Below, piece by piece: positions 9,181 through 32,080 of a stretch of DNA of 47,510 nt. This DNA is from Thermoplasmata archaeon (GTDB taxonomy: Archaea > Thermoplasmatota > DTKX01 > VGTL01): contig JAWCLH010000003.1 in NCBI GenBank assembly GCA_038851035.1, positions 1 through 47,510 of the forward strand, in the 5' to 3' direction. Position numbers and translations under genes: made by a program. The notes below the pieces were generated by a model that worked only from the letters and a program-made list of their open reading frames with translations, ran no database searches and was not told the DNA's origin. Position 1 is the stretch's first letter, and each line of letters opens with the position of its first letter.

Positions 9181-9537
9181 TCACCCGCAGTACTTCCTGT
9201 AGACCGCGAAGTAGTCCAGCTTCCCGTCCTTCATCTCTTCGTTGAATATGACCTCAAGGCCGCCCTCGGCGTAGCGCTCGACCTCCGCTGCCACCTCCTC
9301 CTCGCTGACCAGCTCGAGATTGCGCGCTATCGCGTTCAGGGAGAGCATCCTGTATCGGTCGAACTCAGAGAAGGACTGTCTGAACACAACAGGGTTCTTC
9401 AGCTCCTTCTTCTTTCCAGTGACGATGCCTATGGCCGCCGCCAGCGCGACGACGTTGTCCTTTGAGTCGATTGCGTGGCTCCTGTAGGCCTCGTCGAGCC
9501 TCCTTGCGCTCTCCTCGTCTATGTGGAACGTGACCAT
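9181..9537 (-). CDS. Small 118-aa protein coupled to the DndD-like ATPase
   Basis: A small mixed-charge protein of 118 residues, starting 'MVTFHIDEESARRLDEAYRS' and ending '...DYFAVYRKYCG'. I do not recognise the family with certainty. The N-terminus looks like a strand plus helix (ribbon-helix-helix or DndE-like pattern) and the rest is predicted mostly helical. The start is taken at ATG 9537-9535 because it overlaps the TGA of the upstream ATPase gene (TGATG) and has GGAGGTGAG before it; a GTG one codon earlier is also possible. The one-base overlap implies translational coupling and a shared job with the ATPase. In dnd operons the gene after dndD is the small dndE, so an accessory DNA-binding role is a reasonable guess but only that. 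Confidence 0.7.
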   Translation of the reverse strand: MVTFHIDEESARRLDEAYRSHAIDSKDNVVALAAAIGIVTGKKKELKNPVVFRQSFSEFDRYRMLSLNAIARNLELVSEEEVAAEVERYAEGGLEVIFNEEMKDGKLDYFAVYRKYCG

Positions 9538-11522
9538 CACCTCACCTCCTGTATGGTCGAGAACTTCTGTAGCTGGTCGTGCTCCAGCGTGAACCTGCGC
9601 TGCACGCTCGAGAGCGACTTCCAGTCCTCCGGCCTCAGGTCCTCGTCGGTGACAAGGAGAACAACGTTTTTCGCCAGCTCTGGAATCTTCTGAATCAGGC
9701 GGGTCTTGTGGGTCTGGTCCAGCCGGCCGAACGGGCTGTCCATTATCAGCGTCCCCTCGTGCGTCGAGTCCTTCAGGCCGCCGAGGAACGAGAGCGCTAG
9801 AACATGCCTCTCGCCGTCTGAGAGCTTCTTTGACTCAATCAGCCCGCCCCCCTGCTCCCTGACCCTGACCTCGAAGGTCTCCGGGTCTATTGACAGCCCG
9901 ATGAATTCGAGGGGCTTGTTCGTTATCGAGGTATAAATCGAGGAGGCCCGGCGCTCTATCTCAGCGCGCCTCTGCTCGGCGCTCCTGTCGATTATCTCCT
10001 CCAGAGCCTTGAGAACCCTGCCCGACCGGGATATCGCCTCGAGCAGCGACCTGCTCGCGGCGCTCTTCTTCGAGAGGCTTATCTCGAGCTGGCGCTCGAG
10101 CTCCTGGACCTGCCTGCGGGTCAGGTTGAGGGCTGTGCGAGTCTCTTCAATCCTCGCCTGGCATACCGCCTTCTCCTTGGTCAGCTGGGTCAGCCTGTCG
10201 AAAACCTCCTTCTCCCTGAGGTTCTGGGCCGAATGAGTCCTGAGGGCCTCCCTCTCCCTCTCCAGCGCCCTCGCCACCCTCTGGCGGTTATCGTCGAGGT
10301 ACCTCCTCTTCGCCTCCAATCTGTGGACGTTCTCCCCCTCCTCCTCGACCGCCCTCGCCTTCGAGAGCGCTGTGGTCAGGTCGCCCTGCGTCCAGGAGAA
10401 CCTGTCGGTCTCTATTACTTTGATTGTTCCAAGGGCCTGGTTGATTTTTCCTATCATATCGTCTATATGCGCGAGCGCATCGACCTCCAGCCTCCCGCCA
10501 CATATGCAGATGCCGCTGGCCTTCAGGTCCTTCATGAACTCCAGCTGGTCCATTAGCCTCCCCTGCTCGATTCTCTCCTCCACCGCCTGCTCCTTTATCT
10601 TCCCGACGAGGTCGACGGCGCCCCTGACCGATTTACCAAGTATAAGCCAGGGCAGCTCGGCCTTGAACGCCGCCTCCGCGCTCAGTATCCCCGCCTCCTC
10701 CTTGTCCAGCTCGGCCGAGAACTCCTCGAGCTCCTGAATTCTCGACTGTATACCCCTTAGGTCATCGAACTCCTCCAGGTTGTGCTGGAGGCCGCGGATG
10801 TCCCTGTTGAGGGCCTCGAGCCTCTCCTCCTCCTCGTTGAGCTGCGCCACCTGCTGCGCCGCCCTCGCCCTTAGCTCCTTCAACTCCGCCTCGGTTTTCT
10901 CCATCTCCGGAGAGGATTGGACGTCCCTGAGCTCCTTCTCGAACTCCTTTCTCACGCGCTCGATGTCCTCCCGGGCTTGTCTGAGGAACGGGAGGCCGAG
11001 CGCCTTCTCCACAGTCTCCCTGTTGTTGGCCTGCGCCTCGGCGTACCTAGATATCGTCTCGCCGTCGAAGAAGAAGAAGCTGGCCACGTCCTCGGGGAAG
11101 ACGTCGTAGAGGAGGGAATTGTCGGAGCCCAGGTCCTTTCCGTCCACCCTGAAGCTCAGGGTCTCCTCGAAGTCTGAGCGCCTCGACGGCTCAGCCACCC
11201 CATCCCTCGCCCTCACGCTCCTCTCGACCTCGAACAGCTTCCCATCGTGCTCGAAGGTAACCCGGACCCTAGCATGGTATCTCCCCTCCCGCTTCGCTGT
11301 ATTGTTTATTAAACCGGGGTAGTTGGCCGGGACGAGCCTGTCGTGCCTTTTCTCCTTTCCATACAGCGCCCAGAAAACGGACTCCATCAGGGTGGACTTG
11401 CCCCGACCGTTGTCGCCCTGGACCACAACGACGTTTCCCGGGCCATCCGTTATCTCGACCCGGTTGACCCCGTGGAAGACCTTGAAGTTCTCCAGCTCGA
11501 GCGCTTTGATGAGCAGCTCAAT
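9537..11522 (-). CDS. DndD-like SMC/Rad50-family ATPase (non-canonical or frameshifted start)
   Basis: A ~661-residue SMC-type ATPase with split ABC halves around a long coiled coil. The N-terminal half has 'LELENFKVFHG' and the P-loop 'GDNGRGKST' (~35-43). At ~149 lies 'FFFFDGETI', the hallmark of the DndD family. A degenerate hook 'GICICGG' sits near ~338, the ABC signature 'LSDGERHVLALS' at ~562 and Walker B 'LIMDSPFGRLDQ' at ~592. Length matches DndD (~660 aa). No ATG, GTG or TTG exists in frame before the P-loop; the first GTG (11426) would delete the start of the ATPase fold. I place the start at ATT 11522-11520, which overlaps the stop of the 52-aa gene (ATTGA); the alternative is a frameshift at the adjacent run of seven G (coding strand) joining the two. 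DndD acts with other Dnd proteins in phosphorothioate DNA modification, but no dndC or dndB is in view, so function here is open. Confidence 0.85.
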   Translation of the reverse strand: MELLIKALELENFKVFHGVNRVEITDGPGNVVVVQGDNGRGKSTLMESVFWALYGKEKRHDRLVPANYPGLINNTAKREGRYHARVRVTFEHDGKLFEVERSVRARDGVAEPSRRSDFEETLSFRVDGKDLGSDNSLLYDVFPEDVASFFFFDGETISRYAEAQANNRETVEKALGLPFLRQAREDIERVRKEFEKELRDVQSSPEMEKTEAELKELRARAAQQVAQLNEEEERLEALNRDIRGLQHNLEEFDDLRGIQSRIQELEEFSAELDKEEAGILSAEAAFKAELPWLILGKSVRGAVDLVGKIKEQAVEERIEQGRLMDQLEFMKDLKASGICICGGRLEVDALAHIDDMIGKINQALGTIKVIETDRFSWTQGDLTTALSKARAVEEEGENVHRLEAKRRYLDDNRQRVARALEREREALRTHSAQNLREKEVFDRLTQLTKEKAVCQARIEETRTALNLTRRQVQELERQLEISLSKKSAASRSLLEAISRSGRVLKALEEIIDRSAEQRRAEIERRASSIYTSITNKPLEFIGLSIDPETFEVRVREQGGGLIESKKLSDGERHVLALSFLGGLKDSTHEGTLIMDSPFGRLDQTHKTRLIQKIPELAKNVVLLVTDEDLRPEDWKSLSSVQRRFTLEHDQLQKFSTIQEVR

Positions 11523-11676
11523 CCCCCCCGAGCAGCTTCCGGAACTCCCTCAGCCTGTGGGTCCTGACGGGTACGTTCTTCTCTATCTCGACTATCTTGA
11601 GAAGCGTCTCCTCGCTCAACCTGTGCTTTTTACAGACCTCCGAAAGGAGAGCAGGGTCGACCAGTACTTGGGGCAT
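11518..11676 (-). CDS. 52-aa protein, first gene of the SMC module (or its detached N-terminus)
   Basis: An ORF of 52 codons starts at ATG 11676-11674 and ends with TGA at 11520-11518. The sequence starts 'MPQVLVDPALLSEVCKKHRL' and continues with Ser-Glu-Glu-Thr helices and 'TLLKIVEIEKNVPVRTHRL'; it is charged, predicted all-helical and could be a small HTH-like domain. It lies 52 bp after the Cgi121-like gene on the same strand, and its stop overlaps the only plausible start of the ATPase gene. Its last codons contain GGGGGGG, so a one-base length error or slippage there would fuse it to the ATPase. The family is not recognised. Confidence 0.6.
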   Translation of the reverse strand: MPQVLVDPALLSEVCKKHRLSEETLLKIVEIEKNVPVRTHRLREFRKLLGGD

Positions 11677-11728
11677 GTGACGCTAATCGCTCTGCGGGGT
11701 AAAAAGGTTGTCTGCGGGCCTCTAGAAA

Positions 11729-12349
11729 TCACTGCCGTTCGATGTCGAGGAGGGCGACCATCTCCAGTGCCTCGTCGATTTCCCGGCCCCGGAGCCCCAG
11801 CCGGGCCAGAGCCCTTCTCCCACCCGCCGCCTCCGGGCCGCAGGGAGCGGCCCCGAGAGCCTTGAGGAGCTCCTTTCCTCTCCCGCGCGCTCCCCGTCCA
11901 ATCAGCACGGCGGCGATTCGACGGGTCCTGCCGCTCACCCCGACCAGCTTCAGCGCGTCGCGAATCTGCCTCCGGCCAGAGGCGTAGAGGAGGATTTCCA
12001 TGGCGAGTGAGGATGTTCGGCCCATTCCCCTCTCCATCGCCCGGAGCGCATGAATGGCCGCGGAGCGCAGGTGCTCCTCGCCCGCGAGCGCGCTAGCGTC
12101 GAAAAGCTGAGCCGTCAGGCCGCGGGCTGATGCGAACGCTGATGCCGCCGCGATAAGCTCGCCGGGCTCCCTACGCCTCTGCAGCTCGCCCCAGCAGATC
12201 TCGACCACCTGGCCCTCGGAGAGGGGTACGGGCCGCGTAGTTGCCCTTCTATTCCAGATGTCACTGCCTCTACCGCCCCCTGTCGTCTCAGCCCGGCGCC
12301 GGGATGATTCGCCCCCTTTTCCTTTTCTGCCCTCTTCTCTTCTAACCAT
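11729..12349 (-). CDS. cgi121: KEOPS complex subunit Cgi121-like protein
   Basis: The 206-residue product has the Cgi121 pattern: 'TAQLFDASALAGEEHLRSAAIHALRA' split over a strand and helix, 'SLAMEILLYASGRRQIRDALKLVG', then 'RRIAAVLIGRG'. Cgi121 belongs to KEOPS, which makes threonylcarbamoyl-adenosine at position 37 of ANN-decoding tRNAs, and it binds the tRNA 3' end and the kinase Bud32. The conserved domain fills the C-terminal ~150 residues; the first ~45 are a low-complexity Arg/Gly/Glu extension not typical of the family. The start is set at ATG 12349 because GGAG lies four bases upstream; it overlaps the end of hel308 by 8 bp. An upstream start at 12388 would overlap hel308 more deeply. 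Linkage to hel308 is common in euryarchaea. Confidence 0.85.
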   Translation of the reverse strand: MVRREEGRKGKGGESSRRRAETTGGGRGSDIWNRRATTRPVPLSEGQVVEICWGELQRRREPGELIAAASAFASARGLTAQLFDASALAGEEHLRSAAIHALRAMERGMGRTSSLAMEILLYASGRRQIRDALKLVGVSGRTRRIAAVLIGRGARGRGKELLKALGAAPCGPEAAGGRRALARLGLRGREIDEALEMVALLDIERQ

Positions 12350-14753
12350 CTCTCCTACCACCTTCGTCTGCAGCGCCGGAAACACCACTCTTCTCTCTTC
12401 CTGCTGGGACCTGCATCTCTGCCAGTTGGTTAATTATCGCCTCCGCAACCTTCGGCCCGATTCCCGGAATTCCCGCCAGTTTCTCCCGCTCGGCCGCGGC
12501 CAGCTCCTCAAGACTCCTGAGGCCTGCGTTATACAGCGCCCTCGCCCTGACCCGCCCTATGCCCCTCAGCCTGACCAGCTCGAGCAGCTCTTCCCTGACC
12601 CCGCTCTCCACCCGCCTCTGCAACAACTCCAGCTCTTGCACAAACGGGAGGTGGAGAAGGCGGGCAAGCTCTCGCATTGAATAGAGAATCCATCTCGCGG
12701 TCTCTACCTTCGCCCTAATGTCCCCGGGGCCGACGTCGTACCTCTCCGTCATCACCTCCTCGCCCTTTTCGTCTATCCAGTCCTGCAGTAGGCAGGCGAG
12801 CTTCAGGTCAGCCAGATACCACTCATATTCCCCCGGATCGTCCGGGGGTGGAATGAGCAGCCCGCCACGCGCGAGCGCGGCAGTCTGATCGAGCCACTCG
12901 ATGTCTCCCCTCCTCAGGTACATCCCGACCCTGCGCATGTCCGGCGTGGAGGCTGCAACGTGCAGGAGGCCAAGAGTGGTGGGAGGGGGAATCGAACTCG
13001 CCGTTCCCTCCCTGCCCTCGGCCCCTCTCCCTGCAGCCCCCCCGCTATTGTTGTTGGCGCTTTCTGAGCCGGCGGCGGCCTTTTGCGACAGCTTCCATCC
13101 GCCCTTGTCTCGGGCCCGCTCCAACGCCTCCCGAATCGTCCTGGCCGACAGAGGGTCTATATAGAGCTCGGATACCCTTCGGCCGTAGGGGGTCGCCTCC
13201 AACTCCTCCCCAATCCTTTTGACCAACCCTTCCTCGACCAAAAACTCCAGCGACCTCTCGACGACGATGTCCACCGCCCCCTCCGCACTCTGCCGGGCGA
13301 AGAGGGTTGCTCCGAAGAAGCTGAGTAGCTCGGGCATGGTTGATGCGAAGCCCGAGGCTATCGAGGATAGGACGTGGACGCGAAGGACGCCCTCCACGCC
13401 AAGCTTCGACTCTATCGGCTCGGGCTCGCCGAGAAGGTACTCGTCCAGGGCGATTCGCAGGTCGGTCTCGGTCCTAGCGACTATTACAGCCTCTCCCTCC
13501 GTGTCGTACCTCGGCCTTCCGGCCCTTCCGGCCATCTGCTTTATCTCGTGAACCGGAATGAACACCTGACCCACTCCAGGCTCGAACCTCCTGATGTCGC
13601 GTATAACGACGCACCTTGCCGGCATGTTGATGCCCGCGGCCAGGGTGGGCGTGGCGAAGAGCAGTTTGACCCTGCCCGACCTAAAAGCCCCCTCGACCCT
13701 CCGCCTCTGCTCCGGCGTCAGGCCGGCGTGGTGGAAGGCGACGCCGCACCTGACGCAACCCGCCAGGCGCTCCGCCATCGTTGTCCTCTCTACCTCCGCC
13801 GCCTCCAGCTCCACCCCCTCGGCCTCCAGCGCCTCCCTCTCGCCCCCGGCCAGCAGCTTCGCCACCAGCGGCCTCGCCTTCAGCGCCATCGCCTCCGCGG
13901 ACCGGCGCGAGTTGACGAAGACGAGGCACTGCCCGCCCCCGAGAATCACCCTCCGGGCCAGCGGGAGGGCCGGCTCCGAGTGGAGCCCCACCTCGACTTT
14001 TGTATTGTCCGTGAACCTGACCTCGCCCTCGAAGAGCACGCCCTCCCTCAGCCTGACGGGCCTCCAGTCGCTCGTGTAGTGCTCCGCGCCGAGCCAGCGC
14101 GCCAGCTCCGCGGAGTTGGGGATTGTGGCGGAGAGAGCGAGGAGCTGGGCCCGGGGGTTGAGCCGCCTGAAGCGCGTCAGCAGAACCTCCAGCGTCGGTC
14201 CCCTGTCCGGGTCACCTATTAGGTGGACCTCGTCTGCCACAATAACCGAGAGGCTCGAGAGCCAGCGCGCCCGGTGGCGGAGGAGGGAGTCGGCCTTCTC
14301 CGAGGTCGCAACAACCACGTCGTATCTCTCGAGATACTCGTCCGCCGTGTCATAGTCGCCGGTCGAGACCCCGACCCTGATGCCGAGCGGCTCGAAGGCC
14401 CTGAGGTCCTCGAGCTTCTCGCTCGCCAGCGCCCTGAGGGGAACTATGTACAGCGCCCGGCCGCCCTCTAGGACTCTTTTCACAAGGGCCAGGTACGCCA
14501 CAAGCGACTTCCCTGAAGCGGTCGGCAGGGCAAGGACGAGACTCTTGCCGGCTAGTGCCGGGGCGATGGTCTCTGCCTGAGGGGGATAAAGAGTGGTGAG
14601 GCCTTGCTGCTTGAGAATCGCGACAACTTCCGGTGGGAGGCCGAGCTCGTCAACGCACGGGAGTCCCCGTCCAACGACCCGCGCACCTCCAACTTCGTAG
14701 GGCCCCTCTTTGGTGGCTCCGGGAGTTCCTGTCTTTCCCTCCATGTGTTGCAT
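12342..14753 (-). CDS. hel308: ATP-dependent DNA helicase Hel308 (Ski2-like)
   Basis: An 803-residue superfamily 2 helicase. Motifs in order: Q-motif region 'TLYPPQAE' (~54-61), Walker A 'PTASGKS' (77-83), 'DEVH' box (174-177), 'SAT' (208-210), 'QMAGRAGRP' motif VI (406-414), then a winged-helix and ratchet region and a C-terminal helix-hairpin-helix tail ('LRGIGRVRARALYNAG', 'IPGIGPKVAEAI'). This is the Hel308 order rather than RecQ or Lhr. Hel308 unwinds 3'-tailed forks and acts at stalled replication forks. Length is slightly above the usual ~700-750 because of an N-terminal extension and a ~33-residue Ser/Asn/Gly/Ala-rich insert near 556-589. ATG at 14753 or 14744 could start it. It is first in the minus-strand operon with the Cgi121-like gene and the SMC module. 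Confidence 0.95.
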   Translation of the reverse strand: MQHMEGKTGTPGATKEGPYEVGGARVVGRGLPCVDELGLPPEVVAILKQQGLTTLYPPQAETIAPALAGKSLVLALPTASGKSLVAYLALVKRVLEGGRALYIVPLRALASEKLEDLRAFEPLGIRVGVSTGDYDTADEYLERYDVVVATSEKADSLLRHRARWLSSLSVIVADEVHLIGDPDRGPTLEVLLTRFRRLNPRAQLLALSATIPNSAELARWLGAEHYTSDWRPVRLREGVLFEGEVRFTDNTKVEVGLHSEPALPLARRVILGGGQCLVFVNSRRSAEAMALKARPLVAKLLAGGEREALEAEGVELEAAEVERTTMAERLAGCVRCGVAFHHAGLTPEQRRRVEGAFRSGRVKLLFATPTLAAGINMPARCVVIRDIRRFEPGVGQVFIPVHEIKQMAGRAGRPRYDTEGEAVIVARTETDLRIALDEYLLGEPEPIESKLGVEGVLRVHVLSSIASGFASTMPELLSFFGATLFARQSAEGAVDIVVERSLEFLVEEGLVKRIGEELEATPYGRRVSELYIDPLSARTIREALERARDKGGWKLSQKAAAGSESANNNSGGAAGRGAEGREGTASSIPPPTTLGLLHVAASTPDMRRVGMYLRRGDIEWLDQTAALARGGLLIPPPDDPGEYEWYLADLKLACLLQDWIDEKGEEVMTERYDVGPGDIRAKVETARWILYSMRELARLLHLPFVQELELLQRRVESGVREELLELVRLRGIGRVRARALYNAGLRSLEELAAAEREKLAGIPGIGPKVAEAIINQLAEMQVPAGREKSGVSGAADEGGRRDG

Positions 14754-17607: not shown

Positions 17608-20115
17608 TCATTTACCGCTGGAGTGGGTGTAGAAGTAGAGCATCTGGCCCGTTTCCATTGAGAAAGCGGAGACACAGCCCTCCGACTCCAGAAGGACGGC
17701 GTAGCCGGTCTTCTCGGCGGCGGCGTACATCGAGACCAGGCTCAGGCTGGGGTGGAGGTGGTCCGCCCTGAGCGATAGGGAGACGGATGGGAAATGGATT
17801 CCTCCTTCTTTAAAGAACCTCCAGGCAGTCTCATTGTCACTCCTCATCAGCGCCTCCGCAGAGGCCATCGTGAGGGTCCTCGGAATGGAGGCCTCGGCCG
17901 TACTCAGGGCAGTTGGGGGCGAGATCCAGTCAGATTTCAGTATGTATTCACCGGCTAAGGTGCGAGTGACGTTGATGAAGTACCCAACGGCCGCGCCCGG
18001 CCAGGCGAAAGTGAGGTTCCAGCTCGCGGACTGGGGGCCAAGGCTCCCCTCAGTGTAGGTGCCGCACACGGCGTAGGCCTGGGGGTGGCTGGACAGGAAC
18101 TGGCTGAAGTCCTGACTCCTCGACTTCGCCTCCTGAACGGCCTCAGAGGGCGAGAAGCGGAGGCTGGAGGCACCTGAGCCCATCTGGGGAACGTCGTTGA
18201 AGGAGGCAAAGAATTCCTGGGGGAGGGGGGAGGGGTTGAAGCTCTGCGGAGTGGTGTCGATATCGAAGGTGCCGGCTGAGAAGCCTCTCATCTCGGAAAT
18301 ATGGTCGGAAGAGTAGAATGTCTCCCCGCTCCTTCCGGAGAGATGCGTGTGAATGCGGGTCGGAAGAGAGGCGTTGCTGCAGAGCCACATATCTATAAAG
18401 AACTCATTCAGCCCAAAACGACGCATTGAGTCGGCGTCCATGGTGATATGGAGGCCGAGGCTAGGCCGGCCACGAACGTCGCGCGCGTCGATGGGGCTCC
18501 AGTAGTAAACCCCGCCGCCCGTGGACAGGCTCCCGTTTAGGGAGGAGGGGGTTTCCTGCGAGAAGCTTTTCCCGCGGTATATCTTCTCCAGCTGGAACTG
18601 GTCCAGAATGTCCCCGACCCTTAAGTAGGCTCTCAGGGTGTCGGTCGAGTCAAGAGTGGAGCCGGGGAAGCTGATAAGTAGAAGGGAGATGGTCGTCCGG
18701 GCCCGGGCCTCGACCAAGAACACACCGCCGGAGGCGGGGTCGGAGAAGGTGTTCTCGTCATAGCTAAGATTGCCACCCAGCCTGTAGGTGCCGGCGGTGG
18801 TGGTGGAGGCGTTGCCGTCGAGCCTCAAAGTCTCCTTGCTGTATACATGGAGGGCTCTGTGCTGGACCTTGAAACCGTCCTCTCTCGTCGTGACCTCCCA
18901 AACCCACTGGTCGAGCGTGCCGCTGAATTCGAATGAGACGGCGTTGACGTGCACGGAGCCGGATGGGAGCTGAATCGTGTAGAGATATGTGTCGTTGTTG
19001 CTAAGTGAGGCCGCTCCGGACACGTCGTAGTAGGCCCTGTCGTCCACCCTTTTCTCCGGCACCACCACGCTCAGCGGCCTCACGTTGATTCTCGATCGCG
19101 CAGGCTGCGATTCCCTACCACCCTCGTTCCTGACCACAAGCTCCACGACATAGCTTCCGGGCTGAGAATAGAAATGGCTGACCGTTTTCTTCTTTCCGGC
19201 CTCCGTGGTGCCGTCCCCGAAGCTCCATTTGTACCACACCAGCTTTCCGGTGCTGGACGAGGAGAAGCTTCCATCGAAAACCACCACCTCCCCAGCCGAG
19301 GCGCTGGGAGGGTGGATGATGCGGGCTTTTATGACCTCCGCCGGGTGTGCAAAAGTATTGAGCAGGGCGGCAAATAGTAAAATAAGGACAATCGCCAGCG
19401 CCGCTAAGATTGCGCCCCTCCTCACCTTTTGGTGGGAGTGCGGTGCGACCCTCCGCACTTTCCTTACCTTTCTTACCTTCCGTACAACGAGTGCTTCGGG
19501 GGAGCTTCCGGGTGTGGCCCTTTCGGTCCTCTCCGCCTCTCTCGCGTAACGCCGCTCCTGCGCCACTCGCTCCTCTGACGATACGGGGCCGGGTCCACCC
19601 TCCCCGCCCCTGTCTTTTTCTTCGAGACGAATAATTCCCTTCCTTTCTCCCAGTTTCGTCAGTTCTGGGACTCCACGTGCCGGCGACATCGGTCCGGGGC
19701 GCCTGCGGCGCGGGGTGGGGTAGCGAATCTCGGCGTGCGGGAGCGCAGTGTGGGTTTCCCCGAGCGCTATGCCCGATGCGCGTGGTCTTGCGAGTCTTAT
19801 GGGCTGAGGAGGAGGCTGTGTCGGTGCAGGCCATTCTATACGAACGCCGGGCTCCGGCGGGGACGGGCTGGGGGGCGGCTGTGCCTGAGGCGGCTTCTCA
19901 ACGGGAGGACGGGCCGGGGGGTGAAGCTGCTGCTTCAGGAGCTCTAGCCGCCTCTCCCGGAATCTCTCGATGTCCGTCTCCAGAAGAACCTCAAGCTCGC
20001 TGACATCGAATCCCATCTCCTTCCACTGGGCGAGCTTTTTTCTGAACCTCTCCCTCTCGGCTTCAGAGGAGGTGTCGATGCCATTTCCCTGGGGAGCCCC
20101 TCCAAGAGGAGGCAT
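17608..20115 (-). CDS. Type II membrane protein: cytosolic coiled/proline-rich N-terminus, one TM, extracellular PKD domain
   Basis: An 835-residue protein with no signal peptide. Residues ~17-65 are charged and helical with the motif 'KKLAQWKEMGFDVSELEVLL', the same pattern as the repeats of the 41975-44089 protein. Then come a Pro-rich region (~66-130), a basic region with 'VRKVRKVRKVRR', and one TM helix (~231-253, 'ILAALAIVLILLFAALL'). Outside is a PKD domain (~258-345, 'WYKWSFGDGT', 'FYSQPGSYVVELVV') and a long unclassified beta-rich ectodomain of ~490 residues with many N-x-S/T sites. Basic residues before the TM helix fit an N-in orientation. The starting ATG follows an AT-rich box by about 20 bases. 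I cannot assign a function; a link between cytoplasm and envelope is suggested by the architecture. Confidence 0.8.
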   Translation of the reverse strand: MPPLGGAPQGNGIDTSSEAERERFRKKLAQWKEMGFDVSELEVLLETDIERFRERRLELLKQQLHPPARPPVEKPPQAQPPPSPSPPEPGVRIEWPAPTQPPPQPIRLARPRASGIALGETHTALPHAEIRYPTPRRRRPGPMSPARGVPELTKLGERKGIIRLEEKDRGGEGGPGPVSSEERVAQERRYAREAERTERATPGSSPEALVVRKVRKVRKVRRVAPHSHQKVRRGAILAALAIVLILLFAALLNTFAHPAEVIKARIIHPPSASAGEVVVFDGSFSSSSTGKLVWYKWSFGDGTTEAGKKKTVSHFYSQPGSYVVELVVRNEGGRESQPARSRINVRPLSVVVPEKRVDDRAYYDVSGAASLSNNDTYLYTIQLPSGSVHVNAVSFEFSGTLDQWVWEVTTREDGFKVQHRALHVYSKETLRLDGNASTTTAGTYRLGGNLSYDENTFSDPASGGVFLVEARARTTISLLLISFPGSTLDSTDTLRAYLRVGDILDQFQLEKIYRGKSFSQETPSSLNGSLSTGGGVYYWSPIDARDVRGRPSLGLHITMDADSMRRFGLNEFFIDMWLCSNASLPTRIHTHLSGRSGETFYSSDHISEMRGFSAGTFDIDTTPQSFNPSPLPQEFFASFNDVPQMGSGASSLRFSPSEAVQEAKSRSQDFSQFLSSHPQAYAVCGTYTEGSLGPQSASWNLTFAWPGAAVGYFINVTRTLAGEYILKSDWISPPTALSTAEASIPRTLTMASAEALMRSDNETAWRFFKEGGIHFPSVSLSLRADHLHPSLSLVSMYAAAEKTGYAVLLESEGCVSAFSMETGQMLYFYTHSSGK

Positions 20116-20133
20116 GAATCGGTATTATCCCCT

Positions 20134-20147
20134 TGTAATTAATTAAC
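20134..20147 (-). promoter_or_regulatory. TATA-like box for the type II membrane protein gene
   Basis: On the minus strand the sequence reads GTTAATTAATTACA, ending about 20 bases before the ATG at 20115. This suggests a leaderless or very short-leader transcript separate from the upstream paralogue gene. Confidence 0.45.
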
Positions 20148-20269
20148 TCTGTGGTCCGGTTCCAGACTCCCCCCACTATCCCCTTTTGCGGTTCCTCGCG
20201 GGCATTTCGAGAAGGTATGCTTAATGGGCCGAATGGTACATCTGGTGGCTAGAGGGGGAGGCATTATTG

Positions 20270-20290
20270 GTGGGCTCGGCGCGAGCCCAC
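20270..20290 (-). terminator. Strong hairpin downstream of the 1087-aa surface gene
   Basis: GTGGGCTCG (20270-20278) and CGAGCCCAC (20282-20290) form a perfect nine-base-pair stem with a GCG loop. It begins 43 bases after the minus-strand stop codon at 20334. No T-run follows, so it is a candidate 3'-end structure rather than a proven terminator. The rest of the 219-bp gap has no gene. Confidence 0.35.
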
Positions 20291-20333
20291 GTTCTAATAG
20301 GCCTTCGGGAGGGGTCGATTTCGCCGGTGTTGG

Positions 20334-23300
20334 CTATCCAGACCCTCCCTCCTGTTCCGGGGAGGGTGGCCCTCTTATTTCCTGCCCAGGTCCCGCAGGG
20401 GTGGTTGGCTGGTCTGGTTGCTGCGGATACTGCTCCTGGGTGTACTGCTGCTCCCCCTGTTGGCCCTCGTAGCCCTGCTGGCCGTACTGTACCTGCGGGT
20501 ATTCCTGTTGGTCGTACTGAAGTGGGTAACCGTGCTCATCGTACTGGGGGTAGGGTGGGTAGCCGTCACCGCCAAGCTCCTGGGACTGTTGATACATGCT
20601 CCCCTCTGGGACGGCCTCGGCAGGCTCCGCTTCGAGCGAGGCCTCGGCAGGAGGCATCCTCCTGCGCCTCATCACGAAAAAGGCGCCGATGCCCACGAGC
20701 GCCACGAGCGCCACTATTCCGCCCAGAACCATCAGGGTCCGGGAATCAATCAGGGGCTTTGTCTCCGGTTCCTTCACAACCACCGTCAAAGTTATAGTGG
20801 TCTCGGAGCGACCGTCTGAGACCGTCAGGGTTATGGCATGGGTCCCGACGCTGAGCTCCTTTGTAGTAAAGGAGGGCAGGGTGCTGAGAATTCTGCCACC
20901 CTCAGTCCATGTGTAGCTCAGGGGGTCGTTCTCTGGGTCGGAGACAGTGACCGAGAACGTGATCGCCTTTCCCTTCTCGAACTCCTGACCGAGCTGGGGC
21001 GAGTAGGAGATCACCTTGGGCGGGTTGTTTTTTAGAATCTCTATGGTGATGCTCTTGGACTTGACTGTCGCCTCTCCGTCGGAGACCTCCAGGTATATCG
21101 TGTGCACGCCCGGGGCGAGCGAGGATGTGGTGAAGCTCAGCTCGTCGCTCAGCTCTATCTTCTTGTCCATCCAGCTATAAGTAAGGGCGTCGCCGTCCGG
21201 GTCCTTTGCCGTCCCTTCGAAGGATATTTCTGTGCCTTCCATGAAGGACTCCCCGTTTTTCGGAGAGAGTATTTTGACTTCGACCGGCTCTCGGTTTTTG
21301 TTTTTCACGGTTACCCTCCACTCCCTCTCCACTTCCAGCTCGCCGTCGTCCACAACTACTTTGATAACATGCTCACCGGCGGAGAAGTAGTTCGTCTGAT
21401 ATAGGAAGCTGTTGTCCGAAGGCCCCATGTTCTTCCCGTCAATGAACCAAGTGAAGTTCAGGAGGTTCGGCGACTCTATATCCGTGGCTGTCACGCTGAA
21501 CTCCATGCTCTCCATTTCCGTCATCGTCACCTCGCCCGAGGGGCTATAGTTGGTTATCTTCGGCGGGTCGTTGACCGGGATAACCGTGACCCTAACGGTC
21601 ACGAAGGCTTCGCCTATCCCCTTGTCGTCCTGGCCAGTGAATTTTATCTCCTCCGTGAAGCCTGAGAGGTTGGGGCCCGGCTTCAGAGTGACCTTCTGGG
21701 TGATGTACTCAACAATAACCGCAACCCGGCTCTGTCCGGAGGGAATGATGGTGACTGGGTCATTCTCCGGGTCCTCGAAGACCCGAGACATGTCAAGCGT
21801 AAGGCTCTCGTCCTCGTTTATCTCGACTTGGGCCGGGGGCGGATTCACTACTTTGGGAGGTTGGTTCACGTGCTGGACGGTGACGTTGCAGGTTGCGGAC
21901 ACGGAGGCTGAGGCGTTGTCCGTGGCGGTGAAAGTCATTCTGACATGGCCGTAGAAAGTGACCGGGTCGATTAGCGTTACCTTGCCAGCTGGCGATATCT
22001 CAACCCAGACCGAGCCGTTGTCCGAGACCGAGTAGGTCAGCTTGTCCCCATAGGGTATGTCCACATCAGAGAATATCTGGCTGAGGTCAATGGACGTGTC
22101 CGTGCCTCCCTGCAGCATCTGCACGTCGGCGATGCGCTTCTTTATATATGGAGGGTCGTTAACAGAAGCCACCGTGACTTTCATCGTCTGCTGAACAACA
22201 CCCCCAAAGCCGTCCCTCACTGTGATGTCGACCGACTCCTGCCCGTACCAGTTGGGCTTAGGAAGAATGTCTATGGCGCCGGATGTTGTATTATATAATG
22301 TAGTGAGCTGGCTCGCACCGGCGAGCTCAAAGGACAGGTCATCCTCGTCCGGGTCGGAGAAGAGTGATAAAACGGGAACGGATGTTGACTCGTCCTCGTT
22401 GATAAAGACGTCTGGTATTGTGCCCTGAGCGACAGGGTTGTGGTTGGGTGAGGAGAAGGTGATTTTGTAGTTCATCATCGCGGTGTCATCGGTTATCTGG
22501 TTGTTCCGAACCGCGAAGAGCATCGAGACAGATATAAAATAATAGGTCTCGGCCGGGGCTGCGGGGAGGTTCAAGGTGACTGAGCCGGTCGTGCCGCTGC
22601 CCTGAATATTGACCCCTCCGATAAGATAGTGCATGTTTTGGTCGAATATGGAGACATTGAAAACATCCGTTCCGCTATTCCTATCTACCCGGACTTGGAG
22701 GGTGTCGCCGGCCAGCACTCTGTACCTGTACCAATCGTAGTGGTCCCAGCCTTGGTCCACCCGGTCGCTCGGCGCGGCGTTGTGCTTGACCCTCGTGGCG
22801 TTGTTGCAGTCGTTGTTTCCATCTGATGGGACAAGCATCTTGCTAACTTGTAATGTGTAGTCCCCGGCCCCGTCGTAAGCCGATGCCTGGACATAGTACC
22901 AGCCGGTGTAGGAAGCCGCCCAGCTCACCCTCTCGGTCGGATCTCCGTACCATGATAAATTATAAATCTGAGAGCCATTGAAATTTAGAATATCGTAGAC
23001 GGCGAGGTCGAAATCGTTGGTCCGGTCCGCCGTCATGTTCACCCACGCAACCTCGCTCTGGCCGCTGACGTTGCCGTTCAGCCAGATTCTGTACCATTTG
23101 TTCAGGCCGGGCCGTTCAGAGTCTAGCGTGCCCGTGTAAGTGTTCCCAGGTGTCATCGTGATGGGGTCGTCCAGTGTCACGTTGAGCACGTACTCCGACG
23201 TCCCCAACAGGGCGTTGACGAGTATGTAGTAGGTGCCGTTGACGCTTATCAGAGTGTTGGCGGATGCAGGCGATTCGCTGGTGGAATGGTAGGCTATATA

Positions 23301-23597
23301 GTCGCCCTCTGGGTCGAGCAGATATAGCCCCATCGTGGTATTCTGGTCGCTCCAGCTCAGCTTCGCGCTGAGGACCTTCCCGGCGGTCGCCGATATCTTG
23401 AAATAGTCTTGAGGGTCGTCCGTGGAGTTGACCTCGCCCGTTACAGGAACACCGCTCGAGACGGGAGTGGCTGAAGCCATGTCGTTGTCGCTGTCGGGGG
23501 TCCTTTGGTCCGCACCGGCGGGGGCCGGGAGGAGGACCGCTCCTGCGGAAAGGGTCATCAGAAGCCCAGCCCATAGCGCGAGGCCTTTTCTTATCAT
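20334..23597 (-). CDS. Large surface protein (paralogue 3): PPC-like and cadherin-like repeats, TM, Gln/Tyr-rich cytosolic tail
   Basis: A 1,087-residue protein with a signal peptide ('LALWAGLLMTLSAGAVLLP'). It carries the family's N-terminal motif 'TPDSDNDMASATPV' and then three PPC-like beta domains ('STDDPQDYFKI', 'DHYDWYRYRVLAGDTLQV'). Tandem cadherin-like repeats (~388-690, 'VFINEDES', 'NWYGQESVDITVRD', 'VNDPP' linkers) and three Ig/PKD-like repeats ('DPDGDALTYSW', 'DPENDPLSYTW') follow. A TM helix (~950-972) is followed by RRRR, then a ~110-residue cytosolic tail rich in Gln, Tyr, Pro and Gly. The tail is absent from the two paralogues. An adhesive or structural envelope role is likely, and no enzyme domain is seen. 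The gene lies 88 bp after its neighbour and has its own AT-rich promoter. Confidence 0.85.
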   Translation of the reverse strand: MIRKGLALWAGLLMTLSAGAVLLPAPAGADQRTPDSDNDMASATPVSSGVPVTGEVNSTDDPQDYFKISATAGKVLSAKLSWSDQNTTMGLYLLDPEGDYIAYHSTSESPASANTLISVNGTYYILVNALLGTSEYVLNVTLDDPITMTPGNTYTGTLDSERPGLNKWYRIWLNGNVSGQSEVAWVNMTADRTNDFDLAVYDILNFNGSQIYNLSWYGDPTERVSWAASYTGWYYVQASAYDGAGDYTLQVSKMLVPSDGNNDCNNATRVKHNAAPSDRVDQGWDHYDWYRYRVLAGDTLQVRVDRNSGTDVFNVSIFDQNMHYLIGGVNIQGSGTTGSVTLNLPAAPAETYYFISVSMLFAVRNNQITDDTAMMNYKITFSSPNHNPVAQGTIPDVFINEDESTSVPVLSLFSDPDEDDLSFELAGASQLTTLYNTTSGAIDILPKPNWYGQESVDITVRDGFGGVVQQTMKVTVASVNDPPYIKKRIADVQMLQGGTDTSIDLSQIFSDVDIPYGDKLTYSVSDNGSVWVEISPAGKVTLIDPVTFYGHVRMTFTATDNASASVSATCNVTVQHVNQPPKVVNPPPAQVEINEDESLTLDMSRVFEDPENDPVTIIPSGQSRVAVIVEYITQKVTLKPGPNLSGFTEEIKFTGQDDKGIGEAFVTVRVTVIPVNDPPKITNYSPSGEVTMTEMESMEFSVTATDIESPNLLNFTWFIDGKNMGPSDNSFLYQTNYFSAGEHVIKVVVDDGELEVEREWRVTVKNKNREPVEVKILSPKNGESFMEGTEISFEGTAKDPDGDALTYSWMDKKIELSDELSFTTSSLAPGVHTIYLEVSDGEATVKSKSITIEILKNNPPKVISYSPQLGQEFEKGKAITFSVTVSDPENDPLSYTWTEGGRILSTLPSFTTKELSVGTHAITLTVSDGRSETTITLTVVVKEPETKPLIDSRTLMVLGGIVALVALVGIGAFFVMRRRRMPPAEASLEAEPAEAVPEGSMYQQSQELGGDGYPPYPQYDEHGYPLQYDQQEYPQVQYGQQGYEGQQGEQQYTQEQYPQQPDQPTTPAGPGQEIRGPPSPEQEGGSG

Positions 23598-23622
23598 AAC
23601 TTCGCACCTGCCTGTCCATAAT

Positions 23623-23639
23623 CTATAATATATTAATAG
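23623..23639 (-). promoter_or_regulatory. TATA-like box for the 1087-aa surface gene
   Basis: On the minus strand CTATTAATATATTATAG lies about 26-42 bases before the ATG at 23597. It is the clearest TATA-like element among the three paralogues and implies independent transcription. Confidence 0.5.
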
Positions 23640-23684
23640 TTTGTTGAGCAGGAGACGAGCAAAGGCTTTAGGGCTAAATCCTTT

Positions 23685-26600
23685 CTAAACGCGGCGTCTC
23701 TTCCGGAGGGGGAGGGAGCACACGAGTAGCGTCAGTAGAGCTGCCGCCGTCGCCGGGGCCGTCGCGCCGGGCAGGAGACCCCCCTTAGGCTCCGCCTCTA
23801 CCTTCAGCGTCAGCCTCTTCTCCACATAGTTCCGGCCGTCTGTGACGTTGAGGTCAATGTAGTGGACGCCTGCACTGAACTTTTTGGTGAAGTTGGCGCT
23901 CGTCGAGAGCACTTTCGTCCCCTCCCTCCATTGGATGGTGGGGGTGTCTCCGTCCCTGTCGAACACCTCCGCGCTGAATCTAACGGCAGAGCCTTCACGG
24001 CACTTGTGGAACTCCCCCGGGCTCAGTATGTTGACTGTTGGAATTGAGTCCACAAAGAACCTAACGCTTGCGACAGTCTCCTCGAACCCATCCCACACAT
24101 GGACCTCGACCGTGTGCCAGCCCGGCGGAAACTTGTACCTCAGGCTCTTCGAGATGCCGAGAGTGGCGTTGCCCTCTTTCCAGGTATAGACGAGCGCGGG
24201 CGCTGCGGGGTCGTTTGGGTCGATGTCTGGGTCAATGGCCTCCGCCCTGAGCAGCACCAGCGGCCCGCCCTCGGGGTAGATGCTGCCCTCCGCTGGCGAG
24301 ATTATTGTAATCCGTGGCCTCTGGTTGGTATTGAAAACGGGCACGCTCCAGCTGTGGCTTGTGGTGAACTCTCCGTCGCTTATTGTAACGGTAATGTTGT
24401 AGGGCTGCTTCCTTGATGTTCTCAGGTCCGTGATGAAGGTAAATTCGGGGGAGGTGGAGTTCTGCTTCACACCATCGACGAACCAGGCATAGGTAAGCTC
24501 CTCGAGTGGGGTATCGACGTCTCCGGCCACCACCACCAGCCGCAGTTCCTCCGTCTCGTTGACGGTCACCTCGGATGAGTTTGGGCTGAAGGAGGCGACG
24601 AATGGAGGGTCGTTGACGGGGAGCACCGTGACGGCCACCTGAAGGGTTGCAGAGAGGTTTCCTGTGTCCGTGGCGACGATAAATACTGAATCAACACCGG
24701 TCCAGTCGCGATGCGGCCTGACTTCAGCCCTTCCGTCAGGAAGGACGCTGCAGCTGATGTTCTCGCTCCCGACGCCAGTGTAGCTCAGGACATCCGTTGC
24801 ATAGGTGGTGTCCCTGTCGATGAAATAGTCCTTAGCGATGAGAGCGGTGTTCACCCCGTCCTCCATCATCTCTATGTCAACCCTGTCAACCTTTGTGGCG
24901 GGGGGGTGGTTGGTGTGGAGGACGGTAATCGTCATCTGCTGGAGCGCTAACTGGTTCTTCTGGTCGAAGGCCCGGAAGGTCACCTGCCGCGTCCCGAAGA
25001 AGTTGTAAACGGGCCCTACGGTCACTATGAGGGTGTCGTAGTCTAGAGACATCGGAAGGCTGACGTTGCCCGACCATGTGTACCTGAGCCTGTCCCCGTA
25101 TGGAATGTCGGGGTCCCAGAACGCGCCGCTGAGGTTGATTTCAGCGGTGTGGTCCTCCCACATCGTCAGGTTCTCAAGGCGCTTCGCAACAACCGGTCTG
25201 TCGTCGGTGGGATAGACGTAGACATTAACAAATATGCTCGTGGAGGCGTTGAACTCGTCCCGCGCGGTCAGGTTGATGTTCTCGTTGCCCGACCAGTCAC
25301 TCTCTGGCTTGAGGGTCACCGTGCCATCGAGAGACAGGGCCACATTGATGTGCTCGCTGCCGCTCACCTCGAAACCGATTCTGTCGCCATCAGGCTCTTC
25401 GAAAACATTGTGGAGGTTGAAGGGAGAGAAAGTGGAATCCTCGGCCATTGAGATATAGCCCGGGTGGGAAGCGAGGATCGGCGCATGGTTGGTCGATGGG
25501 GGAGAGGTGACCTGAAGAGTATAGCTGGCATTGGCGTTCTCGCCAGATATCCTGCCCTGAGCGTCTAGGCCGTGCTCGGCTATCGGTACTATATAATAAC
25601 GGTTGTTGACCGTGACGGTGTGGACCAGGCGGACGCTGTTCGTCCACCCGATGCCCGGGAGGAAGTTAGAGGCGTTGGCCACGGGGGTGTAGAGGCCGCT
25701 GACTTTGTGTAGGAGCCAGAGCATATATTTCCCTGGGACATAGCTGTTGAGGGTCATCGTGACCTCGAGTCTGTCGTCCTCGACGAGATAGAGCTTGTAG
25801 AAGTCGTAGTGGTCAAGTGCTTGGTCTATCCAGGAGGATATGGGGGTGTTGTTGATTTTGGTGGCGTGCTCGCCATCCTGGTCGTTGTCGTTCGGTGTGG
25901 ATTGGAGAACCCCCATCGTCACATTGTATCTTCCGCTCCCGCTCCTCGCCCAGACCTTCAGGAAATAGCTCCCGGAGTAGGTAGCGGCTGCCTGAATCAT
26001 TCCGCCAGAGGGGTGGTCCAGGGAGATGTTGAAGGTGTAGCTCCAGAGCTCCAGCCAAAGCCCGTAAAGGATAACATCGAGCGTCAGATTGTCGTCCTTA
26101 TAAATCGTGAACTGAGCTAGGTCATTGTTCAGCCCGCTGTTGGTTCCGCCGCTCATCGTGAAAACATACCAGTCGGCTGAGTTGTTGCTCACCCGGCTCA
26201 GCGAGGCCTCAAAATATCCCAGAGAGTTGATCTGTGTGGGGTTCTCAACACTGCAGCTCAGGACATAGTTCCCCGTGAGACCTTCGGCGAGCGCGACTGT
26301 GAAATAGTAGGGTGCGTTGGATATGGCAACCAGAATTGAAACCGATTCCCACTCCCGACCAAGATTAGACTCCTCCACAAATGCACCCTTGGGGTCGTGG
26401 GCGATGAGGCGGACTTTGATGCCCGGGTAGCCCGGAAGGAAAACGGAGACGTTGAGCACCTGCCCCGCACTCCCGGAGAGCTTATAAATGTCCTGGGGGT
26501 CATTTGAGCTGTCTAGGTCGCCATCGTACGACTGCCCGCTCTGGGCCGGAGTGGCGTTGGCGAAGTCGTTGTCGTTGTCGGGCGTCCTCAGCGGCCCTTT

Positions 26601-26687
26601 TTCCGGGCCCACCGAAGCCTGATACGGGGCGCTGCTCAGTAGCAACAAGGATAGTAGGATTAAGGCTCCAAGCGCGCGCATCCGCAT
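23685..26687 (-). CDS. Large surface protein (paralogue 2): PPC-like and cadherin-like repeats, C-terminal anchor
   Basis: A 1,000-residue protein in the same series as its two neighbours: signal peptide ('ALGALILLSLLLLSSAPYQA'), motif 'RTPDNDNDFANATPAQSG', three PPC-like domains ('SSNDPQDIYKLSGSAGQV', 'DHYDFYKLYLVEDDRLEV'), cadherin-like repeats ('SMAEDSTFSPFNLHNVF', 'MWEDHTAEINL', 'NDPPFVASFSPNSSEV') and three Ig/PKD-like repeats. It ends in a short anchor, 'PGATAPATAAALLTLLVCSL' plus a basic cluster RKRRRV, with no cytosolic tail. That ending resembles archaeal CTERM sorting signals (short motif, hydrophobic helix, basic end), but no archaeosortase is in the window, so a plain TM anchor is equally likely. 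ATG at 26687 or 26681 could start it. Confidence 0.85.
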   Translation of the reverse strand: MRMRALGALILLSLLLLSSAPYQASVGPEKGPLRTPDNDNDFANATPAQSGQSYDGDLDSSNDPQDIYKLSGSAGQVLNVSVFLPGYPGIKVRLIAHDPKGAFVEESNLGREWESVSILVAISNAPYYFTVALAEGLTGNYVLSCSVENPTQINSLGYFEASLSRVSNNSADWYVFTMSGGTNSGLNNDLAQFTIYKDDNLTLDVILYGLWLELWSYTFNISLDHPSGGMIQAAATYSGSYFLKVWARSGSGRYNVTMGVLQSTPNDNDQDGEHATKINNTPISSWIDQALDHYDFYKLYLVEDDRLEVTMTLNSYVPGKYMLWLLHKVSGLYTPVANASNFLPGIGWTNSVRLVHTVTVNNRYYIVPIAEHGLDAQGRISGENANASYTLQVTSPPSTNHAPILASHPGYISMAEDSTFSPFNLHNVFEEPDGDRIGFEVSGSEHINVALSLDGTVTLKPESDWSGNENINLTARDEFNASTSIFVNVYVYPTDDRPVVAKRLENLTMWEDHTAEINLSGAFWDPDIPYGDRLRYTWSGNVSLPMSLDYDTLIVTVGPVYNFFGTRQVTFRAFDQKNQLALQQMTITVLHTNHPPATKVDRVDIEMMEDGVNTALIAKDYFIDRDTTYATDVLSYTGVGSENISCSVLPDGRAEVRPHRDWTGVDSVFIVATDTGNLSATLQVAVTVLPVNDPPFVASFSPNSSEVTVNETEELRLVVVAGDVDTPLEELTYAWFVDGVKQNSTSPEFTFITDLRTSRKQPYNITVTISDGEFTTSHSWSVPVFNTNQRPRITIISPAEGSIYPEGGPLVLLRAEAIDPDIDPNDPAAPALVYTWKEGNATLGISKSLRYKFPPGWHTVEVHVWDGFEETVASVRFFVDSIPTVNILSPGEFHKCREGSAVRFSAEVFDRDGDTPTIQWREGTKVLSTSANFTKKFSAGVHYIDLNVTDGRNYVEKRLTLKVEAEPKGGLLPGATAPATAAALLTLLVCSLPLRKRRRV

Positions 26688-30040: not shown

Positions 30041-32080
30041 ATGGCAGGAACACCGATCGCCGAGGAATTGGCGAAGAAGCAGAGGGAGATATCGGTAGCT
30101 GAGTTCTTCGAACGGAATAAACAACTGCTCGGCTTCGACAGCCCGACGCGAGCGATGCTTACATCGGTCAAGGAGGCCGTGGACAACTCTCTGGACGCCT
30201 GCGAGGAGGCCGGTATTCTTCCGGAAATTCTAGTCGAGATACACGAGACCGGGAAGGGGGAGTACACGGTGGCCGTGCAGGATAACGGCCCCGGAATCGT
30301 GAAGGCCCAGATTCCCTCAGTCTTCGGAAAGCTTCTCTACGGCTCGAGGTTCCACGCCATCCGGCAGTCCAGGGGCCAGCAGGGCATCGGTATCTCCGCG
30401 GTCGTTATGTATGCCCAGCTGACCACGGGGAAGCCGACTAAGGTGATTTCTAAAATCGGGCCTGACCACCCAGCACAGTACATGGAGCTGATTCTCGACA
30501 CTAAGAAAAACGCCCCCGAAGTGCTCAAACAAGAGGTGATTCTCTGGAAGGACACAAGCGGGGGGGTGGAGGCGGGTCCGCCCCGTGAGATCGAGCACGG
30601 CACTAGGGTCGAGTTCACAATCAAGGCCAGATATATCAGAGGGAAGCAGTCGGTCTACGACTATTTGAGGAGCTCCGCCATCGTCAACCCCCACGCCAGA
30701 ATCATCCTGATAGAGCCCGATGGAACTAGAACCATTTTTGACAGGGCCACCGAGAAAATGCCCCCGCCAAGCGTCGAGATAAAGCCGCATCCAGAGGGCA
30801 TAGAGCTCGGTACCCTTCTCAAGATGGCAAAGGAGACCGAGGCCCACAAGATGACTTCCTTCCTCGTCAACGACTTCTCAAGGGTGAGTCTGGACAAGGC
30901 CCGGCAGATATGTGAGAAAGCCGGGGTCGCCGAAAACCTCAAGCCTAGGGAGCTCGACCTCGGAAGCGCAAAAAGGGTGCTGGAGGCCTTCAGAGCTGTC
31001 AAATTGATGGCTCCGCCGACCGACTGCCTCTCCCCGATAGGTGAGACCCTTATAAAAAAAGGGATGAAGAAGGACGTAAACGCAGACTTCGTTGTAACCC
31101 ACACCCGCCCGCCCTCGGTCTACTCCGGAAACCCCTTCCAAGTGGAGGCTGGGCTGATGTATGGCGGCTCGCTAAATAAGGATGAGCCGGCCACGATTCT
31201 TAGGTTCGCCAACCGCGTCCCCCTCCTTTTCCAGCAAGGCGGCTGCGCCATCACCCACGCCATTGAGAACATAGACTGGAGGAGATATGGGCTAGAGCAG
31301 AAGGGCGGTAAGGGAATTCCTATCGGACCAGTGCTAATTCTGGTCCATGTCGCCTGCACCAAGATTCCGTTCACATCGGAGTCCAAAGAGGCGATTGCGG
31401 ACGTCCCCGAGATATTGACAGAGGTGGAGCTGGCCGTGCGGGAGTGCGCCCGAAAGATGCAGGTTTTCACTAAAAAAAGGGCGAGGCTCGCTAAGCTCAA
31501 GGAGAAGGAAGAAATCATAAGAAAGCTCCTACCGATAATCGCGGAGAAGTCCGCCCATCTGCTGGGGAAGCCGGTCCCTCCGATAGAGCCGGTTGTGGCA
31601 AAAATCATGAACAGCGTGCTGGTGAGGGAGGACATTCAGTACGAGGCGCCAAAGAAGCTTCACCACGTGAGGATTGAGGTCGTTAACTTCACGCCATCAA
31701 GGAAGAGGTTCAGGCTCCTTAGCGTGGTTCCCTCGGATGCCCTGGTTCAGAACTTCAGCCCGAAGCCGGAGTCTGTGAACAATCATGTCATCACCTGGGA
31801 GCTGAGAGGCCTTGGCACGATGGAGAAGCTGGAGCTTCGCTTTGACTTAATGGGTCTCGACAAAGAGGACTTCGAGGAGTGCGAACTCTATGTCAAGGAC
31901 ATCGACCCTGAGCTCGTCAATGGCGCCGAGCCCTGGGACCCGGAGGCTTACGAGAGAAAGCTGAAGGAGCTCACGGAGGAGGAGGCGGAGGAGGGAGAGG
32001 AAGGGATTAGGAACGAGGATGAGCCCCAGGAGGATAACGGGGCTGAGCAGGAGAGCGACGAGATGGGTGACGAGGATTAA
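30041..32080 (+). CDS. top6B: Type 2 DNA topoisomerase VI subunit B
   Basis: A 679-residue GHKL ATPase subunit of topoisomerase VI, which relaxes and decatenates DNA by passing one duplex through a transient double-strand break made by subunit A. ATP-site motifs are intact: 'EAVDNSLDA' (45-53), 'DNGPGI' (81-86) and '[10 protein letters not shown]' (111-120). The H2TH-containing middle and the transducer domain follow ('[17 protein letters not shown]' at ~330; '[18 protein letters not shown]'). The C-terminal ~40 residues are very acidic (repeated Glu), beyond the usual core. An AG-rich ribosome binding site precedes the ATG. top6A starts 18 bp downstream on the same strand, the standard archaeal operon order. 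Confidence 0.97.

What the first reader, a model, noticed from the sequence alone, without database searches (positions are those of the whole stretch)
9181..11676. Orphan DndD-like SMC module fused to the hel308-cgi121 operon
A DndD-type ATPase ('FFFFDGETI', intact Walker A, signature and Walker B) is sandwiched between a 52-aa and a 118-aa gene with 1- to 5-base overlaps. dndB and dndC are absent from view. The position after a fork-repair helicase suggests either a defence or a DNA-repair complex using the DndD engine without phosphorothioation. The three-gene unit may be an undescribed system.
Basis: partly seen in the sequence, partly recalled or inferred. Interest (0 to 1): 0.62.

Follow-up and report, generated by a model that had tools for sequence, protein, structure and literature searches.

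The report
Effector-less archaeal CxC-ATPase/DndE module
Three adjacent archaeal genes encode the DNA-scanning core of a known antiviral system (PbeBCD, a sister of the DNA-sulfur Dnd machinery), but the nuclease-helicase that nearly always goes with it is missing from this genome and from five relatives, so this archaeal lineage seems to have kept the DNA-binding motor alone for a purpose nobody has tested.

Summary
Genes at 11518-11676, 9537-11516 and 9181-9537 (minus strand) encode a 52-aa small protein, a coiled-coil ABC ATPase and a 118-aa protein. The ATPase is not DndD proper. It carries the CxC zinc hook and groups with the CxC/PbeC clade (100/100 support against DndD). The 118-aa protein is a clade-2 DndE (PbeD): two ribbon-helix-helix units, closest PDB folds DndE. 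The small protein is of the Sp-DndD family, which I find to match the C-terminal tail of DndC. The unit is therefore PbeB-PbeC-PbeD (Xiong 2019; Rakesh 2024), and the trio itself is described. New here: PbeA, the HKD-helicase effector, is missing. 45 of 47 assessable CxC loci elsewhere have PbeA directly upstream. The window and five other Thermoplasmata-type genomes, one clade (100/99), have none beside the ATPase, and genome searches of all six found no PbeA or DndC. The link to hel308-cgi121 holds only in one family, and the trio has its own conserved promoter-like element. Best reading: a vertically kept, effector-less DNA-scanning/clamping complex that blocks foreign DNA or recruits a host enzyme. 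Identity is firm; mechanism is inferred.

The parts
11518..11676 (-). 52-aa small protein, PbeB-like SP; Sp-DndD family; free-standing equivalent of the DndC C-terminal tail
   Evidence: Pfam PF20306 E 1.6e-5, 25.4 bits against cut-off 27.2; orthologues in five relatives; the same family hits DndC C-termini
9537..11516 (-). PbeC-type CxC coiled-coil ABC ATPase, about 659 aa, probable CTG start at 11516 (ATT at 11522 possible)
   Evidence: PADLOC PbeC 5.3e-75; CxC-side placement 100/100; start from comparison with L013; AlphaFold model
9181..9537 (-). 118-aa clade-2 DndE/PbeD-like protein with two RHH units (ATG start; GTG at 9540 also possible)
   Evidence: TIGR04062 weak hit E 5e-4; aligns with PbeD proteins; model pLDDT 95.8 and Foldseek top hits DndE
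11391..11420 (-). Walker A QGDNGRGKST
   Evidence: direct reading
10494..10508 (-). CxC zinc-hook CICGG at the coiled-coil apex
   Evidence: both cysteines invariant across relatives; absent from 8 DndD proteins; hook turn in model
9789..9824 (-). ABC signature LSDGERHVLALS
   Evidence: direct reading
9717..9755 (-). Walker B and D-loop GTLIMDSPFGRLD
   Evidence: direct reading
11677..11716 (-). conserved TATA-like promoter element (CCTTTTTACC about 29 nt before ATG)
   Evidence: 24/40 identical to L013 upstream region, 0 of 5000 shuffles as good; similar CCTTTATC box in L014
11729..12388 (-). Cgi121 (KEOPS subunit); neighbour, not part of the unit
   Evidence: NF011465 6.9e-23
12342..14753 (-). 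Hel308-type helicase; neighbour, not part of the unit
   Evidence: NF002654 1.6e-253

Best explanation
The three genes are a PbeB-PbeC-PbeD core (small docking protein, CxC-hook ABC ATPase, clade-2 DndE) that lacks the PbeA HKD-nuclease/SF2-helicase effector and any phosphorothioation enzyme. It belongs to an effector-less CxC lineage found in six Thermoplasmata-type genomes. SHOWN: family identities, hook, intact ATPase motifs, gene order, no PbeA or DndC detected by genome search in the six genomes, one clade, purifying selection. INFERRED from the family: DndE's two RHH units touch DNA, the ATPase dimer loops or clamps it through ATP cycling and zinc-hook joining, and the small protein occupies the site where DndC's C-terminal tail would hold DndC on DndD. 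INFERRED output: the complex acts without its own nuclease, most likely as a non-cleaving block of replication or transcription on unmarked or foreign DNA, or by recruiting a host enzyme through the small protein. Self DNA could be marked by methylation, since the genome has several N6/N4 methylases.
For: Family scans; CxC hook in all members and in none of 8 DndDs; tree DndD|CxC 100/100 and effector-less clade 100/99; DndE model and DndE fold hits; no PbeA (TIGR04095 best 33 bits over 65 residues in G000, against 341-440 bits for real PbeA in relatives) and no DndC in six genomes; PbeA adjacent in 45/47 other assessable loci. PF20306 hits DndC C-termini, best E 1.4e-9 above cut-off, and DndC binds DndD tightly while DndD binds DndE (PMC4611135). 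Between genera, NG86 dN/dS is roughly 0.15-0.28 and PbeC/DndE are better conserved than Hel308 (75%/82% against 66% aa identity). PbeABCD blocks viral replication without visible cleavage, and the pbeA deletion keeps weak protection (PMC6459918). N6/N4 methylases present.
Against: No functional data. In H. jeotgali the pbeA deletion keeps less than 10-fold protection, and protection depends on PT, which is absent here. No methylase is next to the trio. Absence searches rest on MAGs (G000 99% complete, but others 68-95%). The neighbours are housekeeping genes, not defence genes, which fits a host role as well as defence. dS is near 1, so the dN/dS values are rough. The 118-aa and 52-aa hits are below curated cut-offs.
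Confidence: 0.45

Rival explanations
1. Domesticated chromosome-maintenance complex: the trio has lost its defence role and serves host DNA repair, fork protection or chromosome organisation, like a small Rad50/SMC with a DNA-binding partner.
Against: Sparse in the phylum (12 of 390 genomes with any relative, 6 of them this clade) and missing in 2 of 5 class members (incomplete assemblies); no conserved neighbour across families, so no fixed repair partner.
Confidence: 0.3
2. Complete defence system with the effector in trans: a nuclease or helicase elsewhere in the genome is recruited by the small protein, replacing PbeA.
For: The small protein is kept in all six members although PbeA is gone; its homologous tail belongs to an enzyme in DndC; the host has other SF2 helicases.
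Against: No shared candidate partner gene near the trio in the six members; the only PLDc_2 match in G000 is one 810-aa protein with counterparts in all six genomes, probably polyphosphate kinase (identity not tested).
Confidence: 0.17
3. Degenerating relic of a PbeABCD or Dnd locus.
For: The system is usually four or more genes; the ATPase has a non-standard start codon.
Against: All ATPase motifs and the hook intact; ORFs open in six genomes across at least four families; dN well below dS.
Confidence: 0.06
4. Ordinary Rad50 or archaeal SMC-related protein.
For: Model resembles Rad50/SMC folds; PDB sequence hits are Rad50.
Against: Rad50 family 61 bits against 188 (DndD) and 251 (PbeC); CxC hook rather than CxxC; operon with DndE.
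Confidence: 0.02

Closest known systems
PbeABCD / CxC ABC-ATPase-anchored system (Xiong 2019 PMC6459918; Rakesh 2024 PMC10853773)
   Same: Order small protein - CxC ATPase - clade-2 DndE; CxC hook; tree placement on the CxC side
   Different: No PbeA HKD-SF2 effector and no PT or methylase genes beside it; small protein is of the Sp-DndD type rather than the Sp-CxC type found in two plasmid CxC systems
DndCDE phosphorothioation core
   Same: ABC ATPase plus DndE with tandem RHH; small protein matches the DndC C-terminal tail
   Different: No DndC catalytic domain, no DndB/DndA seen, zinc hook present, ATPase below the DndD cut-off (188 against 245.85 bits)
Rad50/SMC and Lamassu/Wadjet ATPases
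   Same: Coiled-coil ABC fold; likely DNA clamping
   Different: Different subfamily, no Mre11, kleisin or JetD-like partner beside it; CxC instead of CxxC or hinge

Membership tests
CxC/PbeC ABC ATPase | Coiled-coil ABC ATPase with CxC zinc hook at the apex, sister to DndD | tested here: met
   CICGG invariant; absent in DndD; 100/100 split; PADLOC PbeC 5e-75
CxC/PbeC ABC ATPase | Linked to a clade-2 DndE | tested here: met
   1-nt overlap with 118-aa DndE-like gene; tandem RHH model; DndE fold hits; TIGR04062 sub-threshold
PbeABCD system | Small protein PbeB immediately upstream of PbeC | tested here: met
   52-aa gene, PF20306 1.6e-5, just below cut-off
PbeABCD system | PbeA HKD nuclease/SF2 helicase | tested here: not met
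   Not in locus; none detected by genome search in G000 or five relatives, with positive controls in other archaea
PbeABCD system | Pairing with DndCDEA or another self-marking modification | tested here: inconclusive
   No DndC; N6/N4 methylases elsewhere in the genome, link unknown
Canonical Dnd (DndABCDE) | DndC sulfurtransferase and DndD above model cut-off | tested here: not met
   TIGR03183 only 26-bit partial hit; TIGR03185 188 bits, cut-off 245.85
Rad50 | Rad50 family score and CxxC hook | tested here: not met
   Far below cut-off; hook is CxC
Antiviral defence | Protection against virus or plasmid | not testable with these tools
   needs experiment

The most novel reading that the evidence does not exclude
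An ancient, vertically kept, nuclease-free branch of the CxC-DndE systems in Thermoplasmata works as a stand-alone DNA clamp that silences or stalls foreign or damaged DNA without any backbone or base mark of its own, with the small protein (the detached DndC tail) acting as a general adaptor that plugs different enzymes into the ATPase across all Dnd/CxC systems.
Probability: 0.25. Interest if true: 0.7.

Novelty: new variant of a known kind. Interest (0 to 1): 0.42.

Why it matters
PbeA is assumed to be the executing enzyme of CxC systems; whether those systems cleave DNA at all is disputed between Xiong 2019 (no cleavage) and Rakesh 2024 (cleavage expected). A natural lineage that keeps only PbeBCD is a clean test of what the DNA-scanning core does alone. 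The match between the small protein and the DndC tail also replaces 'disordered negative regulator' with a testable docking role.

Tried and rejected
Rad50/SMC identity (rejected by family scores and tree). DndD proper (below cut-off, hook present, other side of a 100/100 split). Link to hel308/cgi121 as a functional operon (only family f1; separate promoter-like element; insertion in relative). Direct hhalign of a 3-sequence DndC profile to the small-protein profile found nothing; the link rests on PF20306 and PADLOC hits. Search of the DndE profile in PDB sequences gave nothing real; only fold comparison did. Search of other archaeal phyla by the genome search was not possible, so spread outside Thermoplasmata rests on one pattern-limited scan. 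The 2020 ABC ATPase classification paper is not held.

Full report
Observation. The window's minus strand carries, in order, a 52-aa gene (11676-11518), an ATPase gene and a 118-aa gene (9537-9181). The ATPase stop and the third gene's ATG overlap by one base. Walker A, the FFFFDGETI stretch, signature and Walker B are intact.

Identity of the ATPase. PADLOC gives PbeC 5.3e-75 ahead of DndD 5.5e-63. NCBIfam DndD scores 188 bits, under its cut-off of 245.85, and Rad50 61 bits. The protein has a CxC hook (CICGG) that is invariant in the aligned relatives and absent from eight DndD proteins. Bacterial members of the same clade mostly carry CxxC at that place. A careful ML tree of 34 proteins separates DndD from CxC proteins at 100/100 and puts the window protein on the CxC side. 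The AlphaFold model has an ABC head, two long helical arms and a small hook turn at the cysteines (pTM only 0.53), and matches Rad50/SMC folds in PDB. This is the clade named CxC ABC-ATPase by Rakesh et al. and PbeC by Xiong et al. (PMC10853773, PMC6459918).

Identity of the 118-aa protein. The TIGR04062 hit is weak (5e-4), but it aligns with the PbeD of complete PbeABCD loci, three of which hit TIGR04062 at 1e-10 to 2e-6. Its model (pLDDT 95.8) has two strand-helix-helix units, and the DndE crystal structures 4lrv, 7x4e and 5wtu dominate its best PDB fold matches, with TM about 0.55-0.6 and modest E-values. It is therefore a clade-2 DndE.

Identity of the small protein. It hits PF20306 Sp-DndD at 1.6e-5, slightly under the cut-off. 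The same family matches the C-terminal tail of DndC: Halorubrum trapanicum DndC residues 418-462 at 1.4e-9 (above cut-off), Ruegeria 5.5e-5, archaeal G101 9.5e-5, Rhizobium 3e-4; conversely the small protein of L015 hits the end of PADLOC's DndC model at 2e-4. DndC binds DndD directly and tightly, and DndD binds DndE (PMC4611135). I infer that the small protein is a free-standing version of the tail by which DndC attaches to the ATPase. This differs from the published view of it as a disordered negative regulator. I found no paper stating the homology, but the library held is partial. A direct profile-profile test with only three DndCs was negative, so the link rests on the curated family models.

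What is missing. Nearly all other CxC loci carry PbeA directly upstream: 45 of 47 that could be assessed. The window and the loci in G004, G003, G014, G023 and G031 do not. Whole-genome searches of these six found no PbeA (best TIGR04095 match in G000 33 bits over 65 residues, against 341-440 bits for true PbeA in neighbouring archaea) and no DndC (best in G000 26 bits, partial). The six ATPases form one clade at 100/99. They come from at least four families of the phylum; named members are 'Euryarchaeota archaeon M_DeepCast_200m_m1_298', 'Thermoplasmata archaeon nzgw66', 'Thermoplasmatales archaeon Yes46-08' and 'Euryarchaeota archaeon CSMAG_2300'. The small gene is present in all six. Whether PbeA was lost or never gained is unresolved, because the base of the CxC side is not resolved. 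The 45/47 against 0/6 contrast is one clade, so it counts as one evolutionary event.

Setting. Within family f1 the order hel308-cgi121-trio is kept in two genera, but in one of them an AAA_14/DUF4143 ATPase gene lies between cgi121 and the trio. A TATA-like box 29 nt before the small gene's ATG is conserved between the two genera (24/40 identical, 0 of 5000 shuffles as good) despite that insertion. In the other families no hel308-cgi121 pair lies beside the trio in the stretches fetched. The trio is thus probably its own transcription unit next to hel308 by family history, not a hel308 operon member. Between the two genera dN is about 0.14-0.28 and dS about 0.9-1.1; PbeC and DndE are more conserved than Hel308.

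Mechanism. From the family: RHH DndE contacts DNA, the ATPase pair clamps or loops it, and the small protein docks on the ATPase. Xiong et al. saw PbeABCD stop viral replication without visible cleavage, and a pbeA deletion keep weak (<10-fold) protection, whereas pbeB, pbeC and pbeD were absolutely needed. So a PbeBCD core can have some activity without PbeA, at least when PT is present. Here PT is absent, but the genome has several N6/N4 methylases. My best reading is a non-cleaving DNA block or a platform for a host enzyme. A domesticated host-maintenance role is the main rival and cannot be separated from it by sequence alone.

Novelty. The trio itself is described. New here, as far as I could check, are the effector-less archaeal clade and the DndC-tail identity of the small protein. 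Limits: MAGs of varying completeness, one pattern-limited scan of public genomes, and no experiment.

Noticed in passing
L013 8953-10305 and just upstream: An AAA_14 + DUF4143 ATPase gene sits between cgi121 and the trio in the related genus; its upstream edge holds a palindrome (TTTCCAT...AGTGTAGTTT / AAACTACACT...ATGGAA), suggesting an insertion.
   Followed up: partly
window 32099-33262: Topoisomerase VI subunit A (PF21180 2e-57); the ORF before it (30041-32080) may be subunit B but was not scanned.
   Followed up: no
window 17608-26687: Run of large PKD/Big_9/cadherin-like repeat proteins, apparently surface proteins, beside the housekeeping genes.
   Followed up: no
L022 8472-10625: Divergent CxC-like ATPase in G041 with a CGFC hook, weak DndE match behind it and no PbeA on the contig; may be another effector-less variant.
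   Followed up: partly
L015 10351-11745: PbeA there is 464 aa and matches only the helicase part of the PbeA model (249-671 of 672), so it seems to lack the HKD nuclease domain; possibly an intermediate between full PbeABCD and the effector-less clade.
   Followed up: partly
L016 13236-14532 and L017 6591-7838: A PF01877 RNA-binding gene and a helix-hairpin-helix gene sit beside the ATPase-DndE pair in G023, with similar-looking genes in the same positions in G031.
   Followed up: partly
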